32,148 bases of DNA. Source: an uncultured Prevotellaceae bacterium. GTDB lineage: Bacteria > Bacteroidota > Bacteroidia > Bacteroidales > Bacteroidaceae. This document shows positions 3,034-30,448 of this stretch, piece by piece. Made by a program: the position numbers and the translations under genes. The stretch's first letter is position 1; every line of letters starts with the position of its first letter. The notes under the pieces are model-generated. The model saw nothing but the letters and a program-made list of their open reading frames with translations, had not been told where the DNA came from and searched no databases. The stretch covers positions 1 through 32,148 of the forward strand of contig ONSR01000017.1 of the NCBI GenBank assembly GCA_900320565.1. Reading direction: 5' to 3'.

Positions 3034-3106
3034 TTGCATATACATGTACGTGCAATTGCACATACATGTAGTTGCAATTGCACGTACATGTATATGCAAT
3101 CAACTT
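3034..3106. repeat. 22-bp dyad array A (three units)
   Basis: TACATGTA occurs at 3041, 3063 and 3085, exactly 22 bp apart. Between the copies, at 3051 and 3073, lies TGCAATTGC, also 22 bp apart. Both words are palindromes, so dyad centres fall at 3044.5, 3055.5, 3066.5, 3077.5 and 3088.5, one every 11 bp. As a whole, 3034-3059 and 3074-3099 form a perfect 26-bp inverted repeat around a 14-nt centre. The array lies between the upstream terminator and the -33 box (3130) of the sigma-factor promoter, where an operator or activator site would sit. No function is known to me. Confidence 0.85.
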
Positions 3107-3161: not shown

Positions 3162-3266
3162 TGGGGCGAGATGTGCTGACACGTATAGCGGCTAATCATA
3201 AGAAAATTTGCATTTTAGCGACATATTTCTGTCAAACATGTGTATATAAGGGTGGCAAGAATAACT

Positions 3267-3828
3267 ATGGCAGACCAGGAAAAGCAGATGATACTCGCTG
3301 CCCAGCGCGGGCAGGCCGACGGATATAAGTACCTGATGGACAGGTACGGACGTCAGGTACAGCTGCTTGTGGCACAGATGGTTGGCGATGTTCGCGACGT
3401 GGAGGAGCTGACGCAGGACGCTTTCGTGCGTGCTTTCCGACATCTCTCCGACTTCGACCCCGAGCGAGCCTCGTTCCCGACATGGCTCAGCCGCATCGCC
3501 TACAACACGGCCCTGAACCATCTTCGCAGTCGAGGACTCGCATCCATGCCGCTCGACGAGGAGCGCTACAGACCGCCAGACGGGGCACTCTGGGCGCAGG
3601 ATGAGGAGGAGACGGCTGCAAGAAACGAACGGCTCATGCTCCTCGACAAAAGCCATCGAAAGCCTGCGCCCAGAGGAGCGGACACTTCTGCATCTGCATT
3701 ATTACGAGGAGCGTTCGCTCGCAGAAATAGCCGAAGTGATGGATGTAAAAGCAGGTCCGCTCGCCAACAGGCTGCAAAGAATCAGGCAGAAACTAAAGAA
3801 ACTGTTATCATTGACCATTGAACATTGA
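3267..3828 (+). pseudogene. ECF-family sigma-70 factor, frame broken by a 1-nt shift
   Basis: The sequence encodes an extracytoplasmic-function sigma factor, which directs RNA polymerase to stress or envelope genes. The first frame (from ATG 3267) gives region 2: MILAAQRGQADGYKYLMDRY, then DVRDVEELTQDAFVRAFRHL and TWLSRIAYNTALNHLRSRG. Region 4 (AIESLRPEERTLLHLHYYEE, then SLAEIAEVMDVKAGPLANRL) is in the next frame and ends at 3828. The switch is at the run AAAA at 3648-3651: with three A the product would read LLDKAIESLRPEE without a break, giving about 187 residues, normal for the family. Unshifted, the frame runs to 3821 and lacks region 4. The cause could be a true mutation, a homopolymer error in the assembly or, less likely, programmed slippage. 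Start 3267 was chosen over ATG 3240 because the family homology begins at MADQEKQ. A putative anti-sigma gene follows 5 bp downstream. Confidence 0.85.
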
Positions 3829-5650: not shown

Positions 5651-5702
5651 AACTTGTCAACTCGTTAACTTGTCAACTCGTCAACTTGTTAACTCGTCAA
5701 CT
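5651..5702 (+). repeat. Octamer tandem repeat before the blaI-like gene
   Basis: Six full units of AACTYGTY plus AACT run without a gap. They alternate strictly between AACTTGT and AACTCGT, so the true period is 16 bp (three copies). The repeat ends 9 bp before the ATG at 5712 and lies inside the presumed 5' leader. It could tune leader length or be an operator. Confidence 0.85.
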
Positions 5703-11618: not shown

Positions 11619-11660
11619 AGTTTGACCATTCATGGTCTGCATTAATATAAGAAGAAAGAA

Positions 11661-11688
11661 AAAAGGAGCCGCAAAAGCTCCTTTTTTT
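11661..11688 (+). terminator. Rho-independent terminator
   Basis: The stem aaaaggagc with gctcctttt closes over cgcaaaa, and the 3' arm runs into a seven-T stretch. It ends the ftsY-rimO-HU transcription unit. A small perfect hairpin, gaccat-tc-atggtc, lies just upstream at 11624-11637. Confidence 0.85.
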
Positions 11689-11764
11689 GTGACACGATAA
11701 AGTGAATTGGAAGGTTAAGATAATTGTCAATTTAACCAACTTATATTTTCAGATTTAATAGTGT

Positions 11765-11869
11765 CTCGTGAATTCTTTTCAAAATCCTCGTGTCGATTTG
11801 GCAAAATCCTCGTGTCGATTTCATCAAATCCACGTGTCGATTTTATCAAGTTCTCGTGAGTGGTTTCTG
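11765..11869. repeat. 22-bp dyad array B (five units)
   Basis: The core CTCGTG (once CACGTG) recurs at 11765, 11787, 11809, 11831 and 11853, always 22 bp apart. Around it the arms GATTT and AAATC alternate: GATTT at 11795, 11817 and 11839; AAATC at 11782, 11804 and 11826. Spacers between arms alternate between 4 and 8 nt. Dyad centres therefore fall every 11 bp (11790.5, 11801.5, 11812.5, 11823.5, 11834.5). The outer units are degenerate. The array lies about 90 bp upstream of the promoter of the aerotolerance operon. Apart from it and the promoter, 11689-12018 contains nothing else I can identify. Confidence 0.85.
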
Positions 11870-17828: not shown

Positions 17829-17902
17829 GTGAAGTTGCCCAACTTCACACGTTAACTTTGCAAACTTCACACGTGAAGTTTACCAACTATTCACGTTAAG
17901 AT
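17829..17902. repeat. 22-bp dyad array C between batB-batC and batD
   Basis: Units start AACT at 17819, 17841, 17863 and 17885, 22 bp apart. The arms are AAGTT/AACTT, separated alternately by 4-nt (gccc, tgca, tacc) and 8-nt (cacacgtt, cacacgtg, ttcacgtt) spacers. Two units form clean hairpins: gtgaagtt-gccc-aacttcac (17829-17848) and aaacttcac-ac-gtgaagttt (17862-17881). Dyad centres lie at 17838.5, 17849.5, 17860.5, 17871.5 and 17882.5. TAACTTTG at 17853-17860 inside the array matches a -7 box, but no good -33 box is 19-21 nt upstream. Confidence 0.85.
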
Positions 17903-17919
17903 GAAAGAGACTCCATAAG

Positions 17920-21276: not shown

Positions 21277-24200
21277 ATGAAAGCCAAAATTATCCTTTTC
21301 ACCGCCATTATTGCCTTCATTGCCTGTTCGTCAGTCGATGAAAACAGTAATGCTGTGAGGGAAAATGATTTGGCTTATCGTCTGCGCTATTCAGATATCT
21401 CTGCTTCATTACAGGCTGCACAGAAGGCCTACACCTGTTCTTCAGGTAATTCTGACGATAAGGCTGAGGCTCTCAACAACATGGCATATGTTGCTTATCA
21501 GCAGATGCGCTATGATCAGTCCCTTCATCTCCTGCAACATGTTTATGGCTTCAGCCGAAACCAACTTGAGCTTCTTTGTGCCGATGTGCTGACGATGAAG
21601 GTGATGCAACGTATAGGTCGAGGTAAATCGTTCTTCGATGCTCGCCTTCGTGCCCAGAAACGCCTCAGCCGTATCCTCTCTGAGGAAGACAATCTTACTG
21701 AACGGCAAAATCGTCGTCTCCATTATGCTTTGACCGAGCTTCATATCGTGGCTTCTACCTATTATTATTATCTCGGTCAGGACAGTGCAGCTATCAGCGA
21801 GATTCAGGAAGCTGTTCAATATGTGAACCTTGAGACCGATACGACGCAATGGCTTTACTATCATTATATGTTGGGTAGCGGCGGACTCGTTGACGGCACT
21901 CCGGAGGAAGTGACTATTACGGAGTTCAATCACCTTTTTCGCGTCTATACACTTGCGAAAGCTAATCACTTCACGTATTTTGAAGCAAATGCATTGCAGT
22001 CGCTTTCAGCAATAGTTGCTGACTCGGCTCGAGCAAATTTGGTAAAACAGCAACGCATAGATGCCTATAGCTACCTTTTTGGAGAGCACCTGCGCTGGCA
22101 GTCCGACAGCACACTTTCGTTGCGACACCAGTTTGCAGCAGCCCTGTCGCATCACTCGATTGCTCTCTTCCAGCAGTATCACGACCTTTTCCAGACGGCG
22201 TGTGCAATGAGAACGTTGGGTGAGGTGTATTTTACAGCCGAACATTATGATGAGGCTCTCAAGAGTTTCCGCAAGGCGTTGCATCTCGCTTCTGACTTCA
22301 GAAGGTCGCCTTATCAGGTAACTCCCTGGTTGGCAGGCATTCACGAGAACCTCAGCCTTACTTACAGCGCCTTGGGCGACAAGTTGAGTGCCGATAACCA
22401 TCGTAATGTCTATCTCGATTTGCTTGATGAATCCAGACAGAACAAAGAACTTGACAGTCGAAAGGCTTTGCTGAAGCAAGAAGCAAAAGGCGAACGGATA
22501 CAGTTCTTTTTGCTGTTGTCGCTTGTCTTTTTAATCGTCGTTCTTTCTATATTATATTATAGGCAGCTAAAACGCCGTTCACTCTCCTTTGAGAAACAAG
22601 TGCGTGAGATTGCTTCCAGTGAAGACTGTAAACAGGCAGAACATCAGTTGCAGAAGCTATTGCAGGATAGCGAAGAGCGTTTAGATGAGAGTAGGGAGGA
22701 GAGTGAAGTCGTGCAGCAACGGATCCTTAACGAGCAAAAGCGACACATCCTTCAGCGCACAAAGTTGTCCGTAGTCTATGCCATCATACCATACTTGGAC
22801 AGAGTCATTGCCGAAGTTAAAAAGCTCGATGAAATGGGAGAAAATGTTTCAGAGCGTCTTTCCTATATTCAGGAGTTGTGCTCTGGCATGATGACCATCA
22901 ACGACCGACTTACTTCGTGGATTCAGATGCAACAGGGAAAGCTCAGTCTTCAAGTTTCGCGATTCCCACTTAAAGACATCTTCGAGGTTATCTCGATGCA
23001 GCAATATGCTTTTGCCCAGCAACAACTCACGCTTGAGGTGCCTGAGACAGGCCTTCAGGTCAAAGCCGACAAAGCACTTACTCTCTTTATGGTCAACACG
23101 CTTGTCGACAATGCTCGTAAGTTCACTCCTGCAGGAGGTAATGTAACGATTTTGGCCGATTCTATCGATGATTTTGTGGAGATCAGTGTTTGTGACACAG
23201 GTGTAGGTCTCTCGCAAGAAGATGTACAAACTCTTAACGACAGCAAGGTTTATGACCCGAATCGTATTGGTATGAAGAACGCGAGCAAGGGCTTTGGCTT
23301 TGGTATCATGAATTGTAAGGGTATTATCAACAGTTACAAGAAACTTTCTTCCCTTTTCAATGTCTGTGACTTCGGCGTCGAGAGTCAAGAGGGACAAGGA
23401 AGCCGCTTCTGGTTCCGCTTACCCAGAGTTTTGCCTTTGCTCTTTTTCTTTGTGTCTAACCTTTTTACTCAAGCAACTCCGCAGCGTTGTTATGAACTAT
23501 TTGATTCTACCTATAGTGCAAATGTGCAAGGCCGATATGTTGATGCTTGGCTTTATGCCGATAGTGCCATCAATATGGCCGGGGTGCCAGTCGATACTAT
23601 TTTGCTAGTATCTCTGTATAATGAGCAAGCTATTGCTGCTCAGGCTCTTGGTGAATGGGACGCATACCGTGAGAGCAATGCTGAATGTGTTCGCTTGCAT
23701 CGCCTTTTCAGTTCCGACCACTCGCTTGCTTCCGATTGTCAGCAACTTGAAAAGATGAACGAAGATTCGCACGTTCTTTACGTCCTGATAGTCTTGTCGC
23801 TTATTGCTTCTCTTGCCTTATTTTATAGGGTTGTGCTTCGCCATCGTCTTCGCCATCGCGCTTCGCTCGACGACCTTTATCAAAGGCTTACATCCGTTCT
23901 CCGTTCTTTCCCTGAAAATGCAGAGACTTTAGTTGATGAATTAAAGAATATAAGTCACAATTTTGACCAAGCTCAGCTACGTCAACCTGTGCTCGAACTT
24001 CGTCAAAAGTTTGCTTCATCTTTGGCGATATTGCAAGAAACTAACGGTTTCATCGAAGATTTAGTTGAGAAAACGCAGAAGCAATGCTTTGAGCATGATC
24101 GCTTGTATGTGATGAATCAGATACTCGATAATTCGTTGAGCACCATCAAACACGAGACGATGTATTTCCCTTCACGCATCAAGCAATTGACTGATGATAT

Positions 24201-24732
24201 GCAGCAGAACGGAATCGACTCATCGACTCATCAGACTCTCTTAGACCTTGTGACTTACTATCGTCATATTTACATGTTGCTTTACGAGCAGGCTCAGCGA
24301 CAAACAGACCAAAACCTTTTGCGTTTGCAACCTCTTTCTCTGACCGACCTTTTGGCTTATGCATCAACGACATATGGCGTTGCAACTCAGCCAACTGAGG
24401 CTTGGGTAAGGGGAGATGAGATACTTCTGCATCTGCTTCTTGACCAGATGTTTGCTGTCGTGCCTAAGGATTCAACTCTCACAGTAGAGGAGCGCGATAG
24501 TATGACATATATAATATGTAGTGTGTCTGGAGAAACCCTTACGTCAGAGCAACTCTCCGACCTCTTTTCGCCACAGACTGAGCGAATGGAGTATCTTGTT
24601 ATGCGTCAGATAGTTCGCGAGCACGATGCTGCTTGTGGTCATCCAGGGCTTCGCCTCTCTGCAGAGAATACGAATGTAGGTTACAAGATATCTTTCTCGC
24701 TGCCTGCAATACATAAATCTACGAACTCATAA
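21277..24732 (+). CDS. Double sensor histidine-kinase-like protein (DUF5112/DUF5113 type), 1151 aa
   Basis: A large lipoprotein-like sensor. N-terminus MKAKIILFTAIIAFIAC suggests a lipobox with Cys17. Residues 40-400 are TPR-like helices outside the cytoplasm; a membrane helix follows at about 410-430 and a coiled coil at 440-490. Then comes a dimerisation-like helix pair (RTKLSVVYAIIPYLDRVIAE) without the expected His, and a well-kept ATP-binding domain: N box NTLVDNARKFTP (607-618), G1 DTGVGLS (640-646), G2 KGFGFGI (671-677). A second module begins with a hydrophobic span (719-733), a short TPR region, another helix (834-853), an H-box-like IKHETMYFPSRIK with His959, and an ATP-binding domain that has lost the N and G boxes. 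The two halves thus look complementary. The layout matches, from memory, proteins labelled DUF5112/DUF5113. A response regulator follows after 11 bp. Confidence 0.85.
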   Translation: MKAKIILFTAIIAFIACSSVDENSNAVRENDLAYRLRYSDISASLQAAQKAYTCSSGNSDDKAEALNNMAYVAYQQMRYDQSLHLLQHVYGFSRNQLELLCADVLTMKVMQRIGRGKSFFDARLRAQKRLSRILSEEDNLTERQNRRLHYALTELHIVASTYYYYLGQDSAAISEIQEAVQYVNLETDTTQWLYYHYMLGSGGLVDGTPEEVTITEFNHLFRVYTLAKANHFTYFEANALQSLSAIVADSARANLVKQQRIDAYSYLFGEHLRWQSDSTLSLRHQFAAALSHHSIALFQQYHDLFQTACAMRTLGEVYFTAEHYDEALKSFRKALHLASDFRRSPYQVTPWLAGIHENLSLTYSALGDKLSADNHRNVYLDLLDESRQNKELDSRKALLKQEAKGERIQFFLLLSLVFLIVVLSILYYRQLKRRSLSFEKQVREIASSEDCKQAEHQLQKLLQDSEERLDESREESEVVQQRILNEQKRHILQRTKLSVVYAIIPYLDRVIAEVKKLDEMGENVSERLSYIQELCSGMMTINDRLTSWIQMQQGKLSLQVSRFPLKDIFEVISMQQYAFAQQQLTLEVPETGLQVKADKALTLFMVNTLVDNARKFTPAGGNVTILADSIDDFVEISVCDTGVGLSQEDVQTLNDSKVYDPNRIGMKNASKGFGFGIMNCKGIINSYKKLSSLFNVCDFGVESQEGQGSRFWFRLPRVLPLLFFFVSNLFTQATPQRCYELFDSTYSANVQGRYVDAWLYADSAINMAGVPVDTILLVSLYNEQAIAAQALGEWDAYRESNAECVRLHRLFSSDHSLASDCQQLEKMNEDSHVLYVLIVLSLIASLALFYRVVLRHRLRHRASLDDLYQRLTSVLRSFPENAETLVDELKNISHNFDQAQLRQPVLELRQKFASSLAILQETNGFIEDLVEKTQKQCFEHDRLYVMNQILDNSLSTIKHETMYFPSRIKQLTDDMQQNGIDSSTHQTLLDLVTYYRHIYMLLYEQAQRQTDQNLLRLQPLSLTDLLAYASTTYGVATQPTEAWVRGDEILLHLLLDQMFAVVPKDSTLTVEERDSMTYIICSVSGETLTSEQLSDLFSPQTERMEYLVMRQIVREHDAACGHPGLRLSAENTNVGYKISFSLPAIHKSTNS

Positions 24733-28344: not shown

Positions 28345-28348
28345 AATT

Positions 28349-28419
28349 GACGAGCCACGTCAACTTACCCAACGACCTACGTTTCAATGCCTCACGAAAC
28401 ATGTTTCATTGACCGACAT
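28349..28419. repeat. 22-bp dyad array D (degenerate)
   Basis: ACGA recurs at 28350, 28372 and 28394 and ACGT/ACGT/ATGT at 28357, 28379 and 28401, all 22 bp apart. Placing the 5-8-5-4 plan of the other arrays on it gives 8-nt spacers gccacgtc, cctacgtt and aacatgtt. Arms pair only in part (about 3 of 5). It lies between the convergent helicase and lipoprotein genes. I read it as an eroded member of the same class; alone it would not be convincing. Confidence 0.4.
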
Positions 28420-29008: not shown

Positions 29009-30341
29009 CGTTCGCAAGTTTCTTTTCCGCTTCTTCTGCTTTCTCGAAGTGGAAGTTGTTCCAAGTCTGCTCGAAGAGTGCGGCAATCTCCTTTGTGCAG
29101 AGGTTGCCGATGCTGCCCTCGTGGGTGTGATGGACTTCTTTCTTCGGCACAAACTTTCCGGCCTCGATGTCGAGCCCAACCTTCTTGTAGGCATCGCGGA
29201 AAGGCATTCCTTCGGTAGCCAAACGGTTGACTTCCTCGACGGAGAACATCAGGTCGTAGCGTGGGTCGTCGAGGATGTGCTCGTTCACCTCGAGCCGAGC
29301 GATGATGTAGGTGGCCATCTGCAGGCATTCTCTCAATTCCTGGAAAGCGGGCAGGAAGACCTCCTTGATGATTTGAAGGTCGCGGAAATAGCCACTCGGC
29401 AGGTTGTTCATGATGAGCGTAACCTGTTGAGGCAGAGCCTGGAGCTTGTTGCATTTGGCGCGAGTCAGCTCGAAGACGTCGGGATTCTTCTTGTGCGGCA
29501 TGATGCTGGAACCGGTTGTGCACTCCTTCGGCAACTTGATGAAACCGAAGTTCTGGCTGTTGAAGAGGCAGGCATCGAAGGCAAGCTTGCTGACGGTTCC
29601 TGCTATTCCTGCAAGAGCGAAGGCGACGTTGCGCTCAGTCTTGCCGCGTCCCATCTGAGCATAAACGACGTTATAGTCAAGGGAGTCGAAGCCAAGAAGT
29701 TCTGTCGTCATCGTCCTGTTCAAAGGGAAGGACGAACCATAACCTGCAGCAGAACCGAGAGGATTGCGGTTGGTGATGCGATAAGCTGCCTGCAAGAACA
29801 CGAGGTCATCCGCGAGGCTTTCGGCATAGGCACCCAGCCAGAGTCCGAAGCTGCTGGGCATCGCCACCTGAAGGTGCGTGTAGCCAGGCATCAGCACGTC
29901 CTTGTAACGCTCGCTCTGCTGCTGCAACTCGGTGAAGAGGCTCTTGACGTCCTCAGCCACGAGGCGTAGTTGCTTACGGATGAAGAGCTTGAGGTCAACC
30001 AGCACCTGATCGTTACGACTGCGGCCGGAATGTATCTTCTTGCCGACATCACCCAATCGTCGAGTAAGCATCAACTCGACTTGCGAGTGTACGTCCTCTA
30101 TGCCTTCCTCAATGACGAACTTCCCTGCTCTAATGTCTGCAAGGATGTTTCGCAGTTCTACAAGCAACGTCTTCAGTTCATCTTTCTCGAGAAGACCAAT
30201 GCTCTCGAGCATCGTGATGTGTGCCATCGAGCCAAGTACATCTGCTTCTGCCAGATACATGTCCATCTCGCGGTCGCGACCAACAGTGAAGCGCTCTATC
30301 TCCGCCGTTGGTTCATATCCTTTGTCCCAAAGCTTTTGCAT
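29001..30341 (-). CDS. argH: Argininosuccinate lyase ArgH
   Basis: ArgH splits argininosuccinate into arginine and fumarate, the last step of arginine synthesis. The 446-residue protein shows the fumarase/aspartase-superfamily signature GSSIMPHKKNPD, the N-terminal region EDVHSQVELMLTRRLG followed by KKIHSGRSRNDQV, and MPGYTHLQVAMPSSFGLWL with the catalytic-loop His. Length is normal and no key residue is missing. It follows the SRPBCC gene on the minus strand after a 107-bp gap that contains a large AT-rich inverted repeat, and it overlaps the lipoprotein gene downstream by 8 bp. Confidence 0.97.
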   Translation of the reverse strand: MQKLWDKGYEPTAEIERFTVGRDREMDMYLAEADVLGSMAHITMLESIGLLEKDELKTLLVELRNILADIRAGKFVIEEGIEDVHSQVELMLTRRLGDVGKKIHSGRSRNDQVLVDLKLFIRKQLRLVAEDVKSLFTELQQQSERYKDVLMPGYTHLQVAMPSSFGLWLGAYAESLADDLVFLQAAYRITNRNPLGSAAGYGSSFPLNRTMTTELLGFDSLDYNVVYAQMGRGKTERNVAFALAGIAGTVSKLAFDACLFNSQNFGFIKLPKECTTGSSIMPHKKNPDVFELTRAKCNKLQALPQQVTLIMNNLPSGYFRDLQIIKEVFLPAFQELRECLQMATYIIARLEVNEHILDDPRYDLMFSVEEVNRLATEGMPFRDAYKKVGLDIEAGKFVPKKEVHHTHEGSIGNLCTKEIAALFEQTWNNFHFEKAEEAEKKLANDE

Positions 30342-30355
30342 AATTCATAATTATT

Positions 30356-30437
30356 AATTCATAATTCATAATTCATCACAGCCTCTCTTGCCCTCGCTCT
30401 CAGGGCGTGCTATATTATGAATTATGAATTATGAATT
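30356..30437. repeat. Inverted AATTCAT heptamer arms with inner hairpin
   Basis: Three AATTCAT units (30356-30376) are mirrored perfectly by three ATGAATT units (30417-30437), giving a 21-bp stem. The 40-nt loop holds a smaller hairpin, gccct with agggc (30390-30406). The structure fills most of the gap between the SRPBCC gene and argH. It could attenuate or stabilise the minus-strand transcript. Confidence 0.85.
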
Positions 30438-30448
30438 GTGAATTGTTT

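What the first reader, a model, noticed from the sequence alone, without database searches (positions are those of the whole stretch)
11765..11869. A class of intergenic arrays with one geometry (5-4-5-8, 22 bp) but different words
Arrays A (3034-3106), B (this one), C (17829-17902) and, faintly, D (28349-28419) all repeat every 22 bp and all fit one plan: 5-nt arm, 4-nt spacer, inverted 5-nt arm, 8-nt spacer. Arms are CGTGC/GCACA (A), GATTT/AAATC (B) and AAGTT/AACTT (C). Dyad centres fall each 11 bp, close to one DNA turn, so every dyad would face the same side of the helix. Words are shared inside an array and not between arrays. That suggests local copying with concerted change, and a reader that recognises geometry, or a set of paralogous readers with different words. 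I know of no described system with this form. A nucleoid or regulatory protein that polymerises along DNA, or RNA hairpin arrays, would both fit.
Basis: partly seen in the sequence, partly recalled or inferred. Interest (0 to 1): 0.85.

Follow-up and report, generated by a model that had tools for sequence, protein, structure and literature searches.

The report
Intergenic 22-bp mirrored repeat arrays
Short intergenic DNA arrays in a Bacteroidales bacterium repeat a roughly mirrored 22-base unit whose length and core letters are kept while the letters between change together; they look like a new form of a poorly understood kind of bacterial repeat, possibly a landing strip for a DNA-binding protein.

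Summary
Real, and much larger than reported. In 602,511 sampled bases of the genome, 77 arrays have a 22-bp period (67 intergenic), against at most 14 at any other lag from 8 to 33; three shuffles gave none. Arrays A, B and C are sound; D is marginal. Units are quasi-palindromes, best described as core 4, arm 7, linker 4, arm 7. "Words not shared between arrays" is wrong: array B matches 20 other places in its genome, and a frame (CACG core, GTTKGCMAAC linker) recurs. "Same geometry, changing words" holds between species: in the batB-batD-like gap, 18 measured array-bearing gaps are 6 (15), 5 (2) or 8 (1) modulo 22, the core is conserved, and inner arms vary but stay complementary. Strand tests, folding and gene context give no support for RNA hairpins as the general explanation, though array A may be one. 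Local hairpin pairing is not kept unit by unit. Constant-size, variable-sequence repeats of 20-23 and 52 nt are already described (PMC8161180): a new variant of a known, unexplained kind.

The parts
3034..3099 (.). Array A: three 22-bp units TTGC...ACATGT...GCAA (centres CATG and AATT); units 1 and 3 are exact reverse complements, so the whole array folds as one long hairpin; lies after a terminator-like hairpin (by eye) and before a sigma-factor-like gene
11764..11869 (.). Array B (the finding): GATTT-N4-AAATC-N8 units, core CGTG, linkers GGCA, CATC, TATC; between a terminator-like hairpin after an HU-like gene and the region upstream of a moxR-like gene
17829..17906 (.). Array C: AACTTCA-CACG-TGAAGTT-like units between a batB-like and a batD-like gene; the orthologous gap holds a 22-bp array in 20 of the 26 genomes examined (own included) with BatD at least 76% identical
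28348..28419 (.). Array D: weak, probably decayed; CACG, TACG and CATG at 28356, 28378 and 28400, 22 bp apart; 26 of 44 at lag 22
11659..11687 (.). Terminator-like hairpin upstream of array B (the scan lists it on the minus strand only; by eye the plus strand also ends in a run of T)

Best explanation
These are intergenic minisatellites that act at the DNA level as a spaced platform. Shown: the unit is 22 bp, with a conserved 4-bp core (CACG in the main class; CATG, CTGC/GCAG, TATA or CGCG in others), two 7-bp arms and a 4-bp linker whose surroundings read GTTKGCMAAC in the main class. Core and linker alternate every 11 bp. Gap lengths change by whole units and hardly otherwise; inner arm letters turn over in concert through an array and stay complementary at array level while the core stays. 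Inferred: a DNA-binding protein, probably dimeric and nucleoid-like, reads core and linker at 11-bp steps and needs the spacing; the inner arm letters are passengers, renewed when a palindromic unit is born and spread by slippage.
For: Sharp 22-bp peak, absent from three shuffles, and seen again as 23 intergenic arrays in 19 near-relative loci and 27 in 20 stretches of genus mates. Frame constraint at one orthologous gap in 18 species: core 1.85 bits, outer arms 1.27, linker 0.92, inner arms 0.58 (species consensus). Spacing constraint: gap C lengths modulo 22 are 6 in 15 of 18, 5 in 2, 8 in 1; out-of-phase continuation of at least 16 of 22 in the flanks of 3 of 143 arrays, 2 in the shuffled control. 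The nearest genome differs by exactly one unit in gap C, 116 versus 138 bp, and L049 by one unit in array B. Array-level symmetry: over 53 distinct words around CACG the four inner pairs are Watson-Crick in 132 of 212, permuted 80.4 (SD 6.1), the three outer in 115 of 159, permuted 92.5 (SD 4.0); GT (20) and AC (25) mismatches are about equally below expectation (36 and 38.5). Context: 39 codirectional, 12 convergent, 11 divergent of 62 arrays with both neighbours called, against 95, 41, 42 of 178 gaps.
Against: No reader protein was found, nor searched for. Of the 26 genomes compared at gap C, 6 lack the array; the class is confined to a clade. Most arrays may descend from a few ancestors, so a shared period can be inheritance rather than repeated selection. 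Dyads are loose: 33 of 70 words have 6 or fewer of 11 pairs, and CACG stands in 38 of 53 unit junctions at gap C. Classes with CATG, CTGCAG or TATA cores lack the CACG frame, so one reader would have to be tolerant. In distant genomes lag 22 (5 arrays) hardly exceeds lags 21 and 7 (4 each).
Confidence: 0.42

Rival explanations
1. No function: self-propagating minisatellites. Slippage adds and removes whole units, inverted template switching makes palindromic units, and the 22-bp length is inherited from ancestral arrays that were copied about the genome.
For: Blocks with GGGAC, GATTT and AAGTT words recur together in the own genome (14 stretches read by eye, several partial). Neighbouring units of the same orientation share a variant in 592 of 1557 comparisons (38%), units three apart in 88 of 743 (12%), as slippage predicts. 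Pairing is loose (132 of 212) and not kept unit by unit (29 better, 32 worse, p 0.80).
Against: Core and outer arms stay while inner arms vary at one orthologous gap. Arrays stand in the same gap in 20 of 26 genomes, with hardly any length change other than whole units. Neutral arrays should drift in period.
Confidence: 0.32
2. RNA hairpin arrays: the arrays are transcribed and fold as hairpins that protect, insulate or regulate transcripts.
For: Mean folding energy is 3.8 SD below dinucleotide shuffles for 121 arrays. Array A folds as one long hairpin in all nine orthologous sequences folded; in three of them the sense strand folds better by 8 to 14 kcal/mol (in two the antisense is better by 2 to 2.5). 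Over 54 codirectional dyadic arrays GT mismatches outnumber AC on the sense strand, 224 to 172. At unit level the two pairs next to CACG favour GT over AC on that strand (77 to 20), balanced by AC farther out (totals 126 and 132).
Against: The GT excess is as large in convergent (92 to 59) and divergent (53 to 38) arrays, where the strand is arbitrary, and by array it is 28 to 20. Sense and antisense energies do not differ over 76 codirectional arrays (sense lower 37, antisense 38). At gap C GT and AC are equal, 36 each. GT is as depleted as AC over 53 words. Arrays ignore gene orientation. A variant is answered in the adjacent inverted arm in 94 of 1536 comparisons, elsewhere in 190 of 1880. 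No Rfam match in the window at gathering thresholds.
Confidence: 0.12
3. A set of paralogous readers, each with its own word, so that arrays are multi-copy operators of small regulons.
For: Words recur at several places in one genome, and both arms of an array tend to the same half-site without local pairing, as independent half-sites for a dimer would.
Against: 53 distinct words around one CACG core in the sampled genomes would need many readers; words differ between close species; gene context shows no common position.
Confidence: 0.08
4. Mobile or REP-like elements: the arrays are bodies of miniature transposable elements moved by a transposase.
For: Composite blocks in many copies. Gap B is about 95 bp and without an array in L050, L052, L054 and L059. 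Some array-bearing genomes do have Y1 transposase matches (for example G026, G034, G076, G085, G126, G154). The first flanking half-units of arrays pair with each other more than permuted.
Against: No Y1 transposase (PF01797) in the own genome, nor in G123, G100, G129, G098, G035, G007 or G127, which carry arrays. Positions A and C are conserved across species. Target duplications were not looked for.
Confidence: 0.06

Closest known systems
Constant-size, variable-sequence tandem repeats of bacteria (Subirana and Messeguer; PMC8161180, and its reference 3, J Bacteriol 2020, not held)
   Same: Repeat length fixed within a narrow range (20-21 and 52 nt; '20-23 nt' in individual species of many groups), sequence variable, mostly non-coding, several families per genome, species specific, short signals shared by the repeats of a species, only partial conservation between strains; the authors suggest a protein that polymerises along them, or small RNAs. 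For the 52-nt class they note that short sequences and their reverse often occur in one repeat.
   Different: Here 22 bp in Bacteroidales, often 3-5 units (their search needs at least four), an explicit 4-7-4-7 dyad plan, conserved core with covarying arms at orthologous gaps, and gap lengths in steps of the unit. 'Bacteroid' and 'Prevotella' do not occur in the main texts of PMC6749651 and PMC8161180.
BrickBuilt minisatellite/MITE of Porphyromonas gingivalis (PMC4596501)
   Same: Bacteroidales, intergenic tandem repeat of 23 nt, whole units gained or lost between strains.
   Different: One family of 19 elements with leader, tail and terminal inverted repeats like those of insertion sequences; 'palindrom' does not occur in its main text (12 of 28 passages seen).
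REP/BIME palindromic repeats with RAYT transposases (recalled)
   Same: Intergenic, palindromic, many copies per genome.
   Different: No Y1 transposase in the own genome; strict tandem 22-bp phase.

Membership tests
Constant-size, variable-sequence bacterial tandem repeats (20-23 / 52 nt) | One repeat length dominates the genome's non-coding tandem repeats | tested here: met
   77 arrays at lag 22, at most 14 at any other lag from 8 to 33, in 602,511 bases
Constant-size, variable-sequence bacterial tandem repeats (20-23 / 52 nt) | Different sequence families of the same length in one genome, species specific | tested here: met
   31 of 70 non-redundant words come from the own genome sample; the AAGTT double unit is found at 20 places in the own genome and at 0-2 in each of 36 genus mates
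Constant-size, variable-sequence bacterial tandem repeats (20-23 / 52 nt) | At least four repeats per array (their search rule) | tested here: inconclusive
   Many arrays have four or more units, but A has three
Constant-size, variable-sequence bacterial tandem repeats (20-23 / 52 nt) | Characteristic short signals shared by repeats of a species | tested here: met
   CACG/GTTKGCMAAC frame, one mismatch allowed: 11 forward and 7 reverse matches in the own genome, reversed control 0. Over 399 genomes the control matched in two others (G150 3+7, G504 1+1)
BrickBuilt-type MITE/minisatellite | Leader and tail with terminal inverted repeats like an insertion sequence | tested here: inconclusive
   First flanking half-units pair 0.377 to 0.406 against 0.267 to 0.303 permuted (z 4.0 to 6.3), falling off at the second; leaders and tails were not sought otherwise
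BrickBuilt-type MITE/minisatellite | 23-nt repeat | tested here: not met
   Period 22; lag 23 gives 1 array in the own sample
REP/BIME with RAYT | Y1 (TnpA-REP-like) transposase in the genome | tested here: not met
   PF01797: 0 matches in the own genome (89% complete); 62 of 139 genus genomes positive, 53 over the cut-off
Structured RNA family | Match to a curated Rfam family | tested here: not met
   0 matches at gathering thresholds in the window; other loci not searched
Structured RNA family | G-U pairs tolerated over A-C on the transcribed strand | tested here: inconclusive
   224 GT to 172 AC over 54 codirectional arrays, but 92 to 59 and 53 to 38 where the strand is arbitrary; by array 28 to 20; gap C 36 to 36; 53 words 20 to 25
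CRISPR array | Identical repeats separated by unique spacers | tested here: not met
   Units are contiguous 22-bp repeats without unique spacers; cas genes were not searched

The most novel reading that the evidence does not exclude
A chromosome-wide platform that is read mainly by spacing and symmetry: a nucleoid protein polymerises along alternating core and linker sites at 11-bp steps, tolerates almost any arm word, and the cell renews the words in concert while holding the 22-bp ruler to the base, so that orthologous gaps keep the array for longer than they keep its letters.
Probability: 0.15. Interest if true: 0.85.

Novelty: new variant of a known kind. Interest (0 to 1): 0.6.

Why it matters
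Constant-length, variable-sequence repeats are an acknowledged puzzle in bacteria. Here they stand in the same gap in about twenty related genomes, so what is kept (length, core, symmetry) and what is free (arm letters) can be measured directly. That turns the question of what reads them into concrete tests: a spacing series, core mutants and a pull-down with array C DNA.

Tried and rejected
RNA hairpins as the general explanation: tested by GT/AC counts, sense and antisense folding energy, gene context and Rfam. Not supported for the class; left open for array A. The counts are mixed: see the rival explanation for those that lean to GT.

Local hairpin or cruciform per unit, or hairpin-templated repair of each unit: arms of one core do not pair better than swapped arms of neighbours, and variants are not answered in the adjacent inverted arm. 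Rejected as the main cause of the complementarity.

Whole-array hairpin as a general plan: pairs symmetric about the array middle look better (66 of 376 against 190 of 1880), but edge units confound this and the flank signal is confined to the first half-unit. Kept only for the A class.

REP/RAYT origin: no Y1 transposase in the own genome. Background 22-bp periodicity of all intergenic DNA: not clear outside arrays (0.277 against a mean of 0.265, z 1.7).

Weak points. The own-genome sample (23% of the genome) includes contigs chosen because they matched array B; 14 stretches picked by contig number alone gave 6 arrays in 92 kb, 65 per Mb, and arrays in 5 of 28 gaps of at least 100 bp, against 128 per Mb and 50 of 178 in the whole sample. 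Gene contexts rest on greedy ORF calls of at least 100 aa; 10 of 77 arrays overlap such ORFs by half or more. Gene names (moxR, bat, HU, sigma factor, argH) are from reading translations and from memory; no family search was run on the window's proteins. Permutation tests do not correct for phylogeny. The outer arms at gap C show no significant covariation of their own (41 of 57 against 38.9, SD 1.9). sees only continuations of at least 16 of 22. One search found BatD in 122 of 139 genus genomes, and I compared the 30 loci it gave out. One search gave 30 sigma-factor loci, of which I scanned 14 for array A: found in 8 (own included), not in G119, G076, G128, G096, G151 and G116. In the gap C length count, G034, G011 and G119 were taken from the matching named records L062, L066 and L058 because the automatic gap ends were wrong; G019 and G065 were left out. 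The arrays of G076 (25 of 44) and G034 (29) at gap C are weak at lag 22. G034 entered out of register (it lowers the count) and was dropped. The composite blocks were compared by eye.

Literature: all ten searches of the held library were used. Those that paired Prevotella, Bacteroidetes or Bacteroidales with such repeats listed nothing, except one P. gingivalis resequencing paper (PMC5771137; listing only). Subscription papers are not held, and reference 3 of PMC8161180 could not be read. Of PMC8161180 I saw the abstract, introduction, part 1 of 2 of the results, the discussion, the figure legends and tables, and passages; of PMC6749651 the first of five parts and passages; of PMC4596501 12 of 28 passages.

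Full report
What was checked. The window is contig C80 of a 2.63-Mb, 122-contig genome; the closest named records by rimO are Bacteroidales/Bacteroidaceae MAGs, many with ruminant-gut sample names. Arrays A, B and C are plain at lag 22 (38, 38 and 33 of 44), above the highest value in 200 shuffles of the window (26); D ties that value.

A genome-wide class. In the window plus 40 stretches of the genome (602,511 non-N bases) I counted runs of 44-base windows with at least 32 matches, at lags 8 to 33, 44 and 66. Lag 22 gave 77 arrays, 67 intergenic; the next were lag 14 (14 arrays) and lag 21 (10), apart from 44 (41) and 66 (9), which are multiples; three shuffles gave none. The sample is enriched for contigs that matched array B; 14 stretches taken by contig number alone gave 6 arrays in 92 kb. 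Outside arrays, intergenic DNA has no clear 22-bp period, so arrays are discrete objects.

Taxonomic reach. Around rimO in 80 loci of other genomes, 19 near relatives (337 kb) hold 23 intergenic lag-22 arrays and at most 5 at any other lag examined apart from 44; 12 intermediate loci hold 3; 49 distant loci (894 kb) hold 5, hardly more than lags 21 and 7 (4 each). Of the 10 lag-22 arrays in the intermediate and distant loci, coding ones included, 7 have a dyad of at least 8 of 11, about 0.2 expected. In one stretch from each of 20 genus mates, 13 genomes hold 27 intergenic arrays; 20 stretches (262 kb) from other families of the order hold none. The CACG/GTTKGCMAAC frame is found in 6 of 34 genus genomes searched and in 1 of 365 others, the last with a different-looking element; the reversed control matched in two genomes, one of them in the genus. 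Three genus mates without lag-22 arrays in their stretch (G012, G115, G151) have period-21 arrays that look dyadic by eye.

Anatomy. Collapsing 143 arrays by similarity leaves 70 words. Twenty-four have at least 8 of 11 complementary pairs, where about 1.5 are expected. In these, pairing is 0.83 to 0.92 over seven positions and lower at both centres, and one centre is less conserved than the rest. Thirty-three of the 70 words have 6 or fewer pairs, so the dyad is a tendency, not a rule.

Words. Array B matches 20 other places in its own genome. GATTT, AAGTT and GGGAC blocks follow each other in a recurring composite (by eye). So words are shared between arrays within a genome. Between genomes they change: the exact AAGTT double unit stands at 20 places here and at 0 to 2 in each of 36 genus mates.

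Orthologous gaps. Gap C (between batB-like and batD-like genes) holds a 22-bp array in 20 of 26 genomes (own included) with BatD at least 76% identical, and in none of four at 63 to 64%; in the distant Bacteroides and Phocaeicola loci the gap is mostly under 65 bp and shows no 22-bp array. For 18 gaps with measured ends, lengths are 94, 116, 137, 138, 159, 160, 162 and 182: 6 modulo 22 in 15, 5 in two, 8 in one. Over 18 species consensuses the core keeps 1.85 bits, outer arms 1.27, linker 0.92, inner arms 0.58; at unit level CACG stands in 38 of 53 junctions. Arms pair in 98 of 133 positions against 70.8 (SD 4.6) when species are permuted; the inner four pairs carry this (57 of 76 against 32.0, SD 4.1), the outer three do not (41 of 57 against 38.9, SD 1.9). 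Gap A holds three units in the window and in G123, G019, G035, G100, G154, G023 and G011, that is 8 of 14 sigma-factor loci scanned, and in several named records; the inner word differs in all three copies at once, for example around ACATGT here and around CATGGCGATG or CGTCGCCATG in L052. Gap B holds the same GATTT word in L049 and a different word in L051, and is about 95 bp without an array in L050, L052, L054 and L059. The nearest genome (G123, BatD 100% identical) has one unit more in gap C; L049, whose gap A sequence is that of G123, has one unit more in array B.

DNA or RNA. Of 62 arrays with both neighbours called, 39 lie between codirectional, 12 between convergent and 11 between divergent genes, like the 178 gaps of at least 100 bp (95, 41, 42). 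Over 53 words around CACG, GT (20) and AC (25) mismatches are both below expectation (36 and 38.5); at unit level the two pairs next to the core favour GT (77 to 20) and the outer ones AC, totals 126 and 132. At gap C the counts are 36 and 36. Over 54 codirectional arrays GT leads 224 to 172, but it also leads where the strand is arbitrary, and by array the score is 28 to 20. Sense and antisense folding energies do not differ over 76 codirectional arrays. Array A could be RNA: all nine orthologous sequences fold as one long hairpin, three clearly better as sense, two slightly better as antisense.

How the symmetry is kept. If each hairpin mattered, a change in one arm would be answered in its own partner. 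It is not: among 94 neighbouring units that differ in both arms, own-core pairing equals swapped pairing (29 better, 32 worse, p 0.80), and a variant recurs in the adjacent inverted arm in 94 of 1536 comparisons, in other inverted arms in 190 of 1880, in the arm symmetric about the array middle in 66 of 376, and in the next unit of the same orientation in 592 of 1557. So the dyad belongs to the array's word, renewed as a whole, and units spread to neighbours, as by slippage. Array A shows a further mode: units 1 and 3 are exact reverse complements.

Reading. Conserved core and linker with exact spacing, free arms, no gene preference: the simplest reading is a DNA-binding, nucleoid-like protein that steps along the array at 11 bp, with the arms as passengers. 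The step from constraint to protein is inference; no reader was identified. The main rival is that arrays are functionless minisatellites with an inherited period; the slow core and the rarity of other length changes (3 out-of-phase continuations in 143 arrays, control 2; gap lengths) speak against it but do not exclude it.

Comparison with the known. Subirana and Messeguer describe bacterial tandem repeats of constant size (20-21 and 52 nt; 20-23 nt in many groups) and variable sequence, with shared short signals, and suggest a polymerising protein or small RNA (PMC8161180). The present arrays fit that description and are filed as a variant of that kind: 22 bp, Bacteroidales, with an explicit dyad plan and orthologous covariation. 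REP/RAYT membership fails for lack of the transposase in the own genome. BrickBuilt of P. gingivalis (PMC4596501, passages) is a 23-nt minisatellite in one MITE family.

Noticed in passing
window 5651-5702: Six and a half copies of an 8-bp repeat (AACTCGTC-like) in the gap just upstream of a BlaI/MecI-like regulator gene (name from reading the translation): a second, shorter-period intergenic array.
   Followed up: no
window 3240-3828: The sigma-factor-like gene after array A looks split between two frames (ORFs 3240-3821 and 3601-3828): a frameshift or an assembly error.
   Followed up: no
window 21277-24732: One 1151-aa ORF looks like two sensor-kinase halves in one frame, read from the translation only.
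   Followed up: no
window 30339-30444: Two runs of a 7-bp repeat in opposite orientation (CATAATT and ATTATGA) beside an argH-like gene; 7-bp repeats may contribute to the arrays seen at lags 14, 21 and 28.
   Followed up: no
L038:570-896, L044:2401-2681, L037:1-305, L031, L032, L017, L043, L042 and others: A recurring composite of three array blocks (GGGAC, GATTT, AAGTT/CTGCAG), at contig ends in several cases, which suggests that it breaks the assembly.
   Followed up: partly
L198:14201-14307, L202:17140-17205, L206:4225-4332: Period-21 arrays with ATTTTCA...TGAAAAT-like words in genus mates G012, G115 and G151, which showed no 22-bp arrays in the stretch read.
   Followed up: partly
gap B in L053, L057, L058, L064, L065, L066: The gap before the moxR-like gene carries differing sequence of 400 to 1000 bases in these relatives, some with long inverted repeats by eye; a variable spot.
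   Followed up: no
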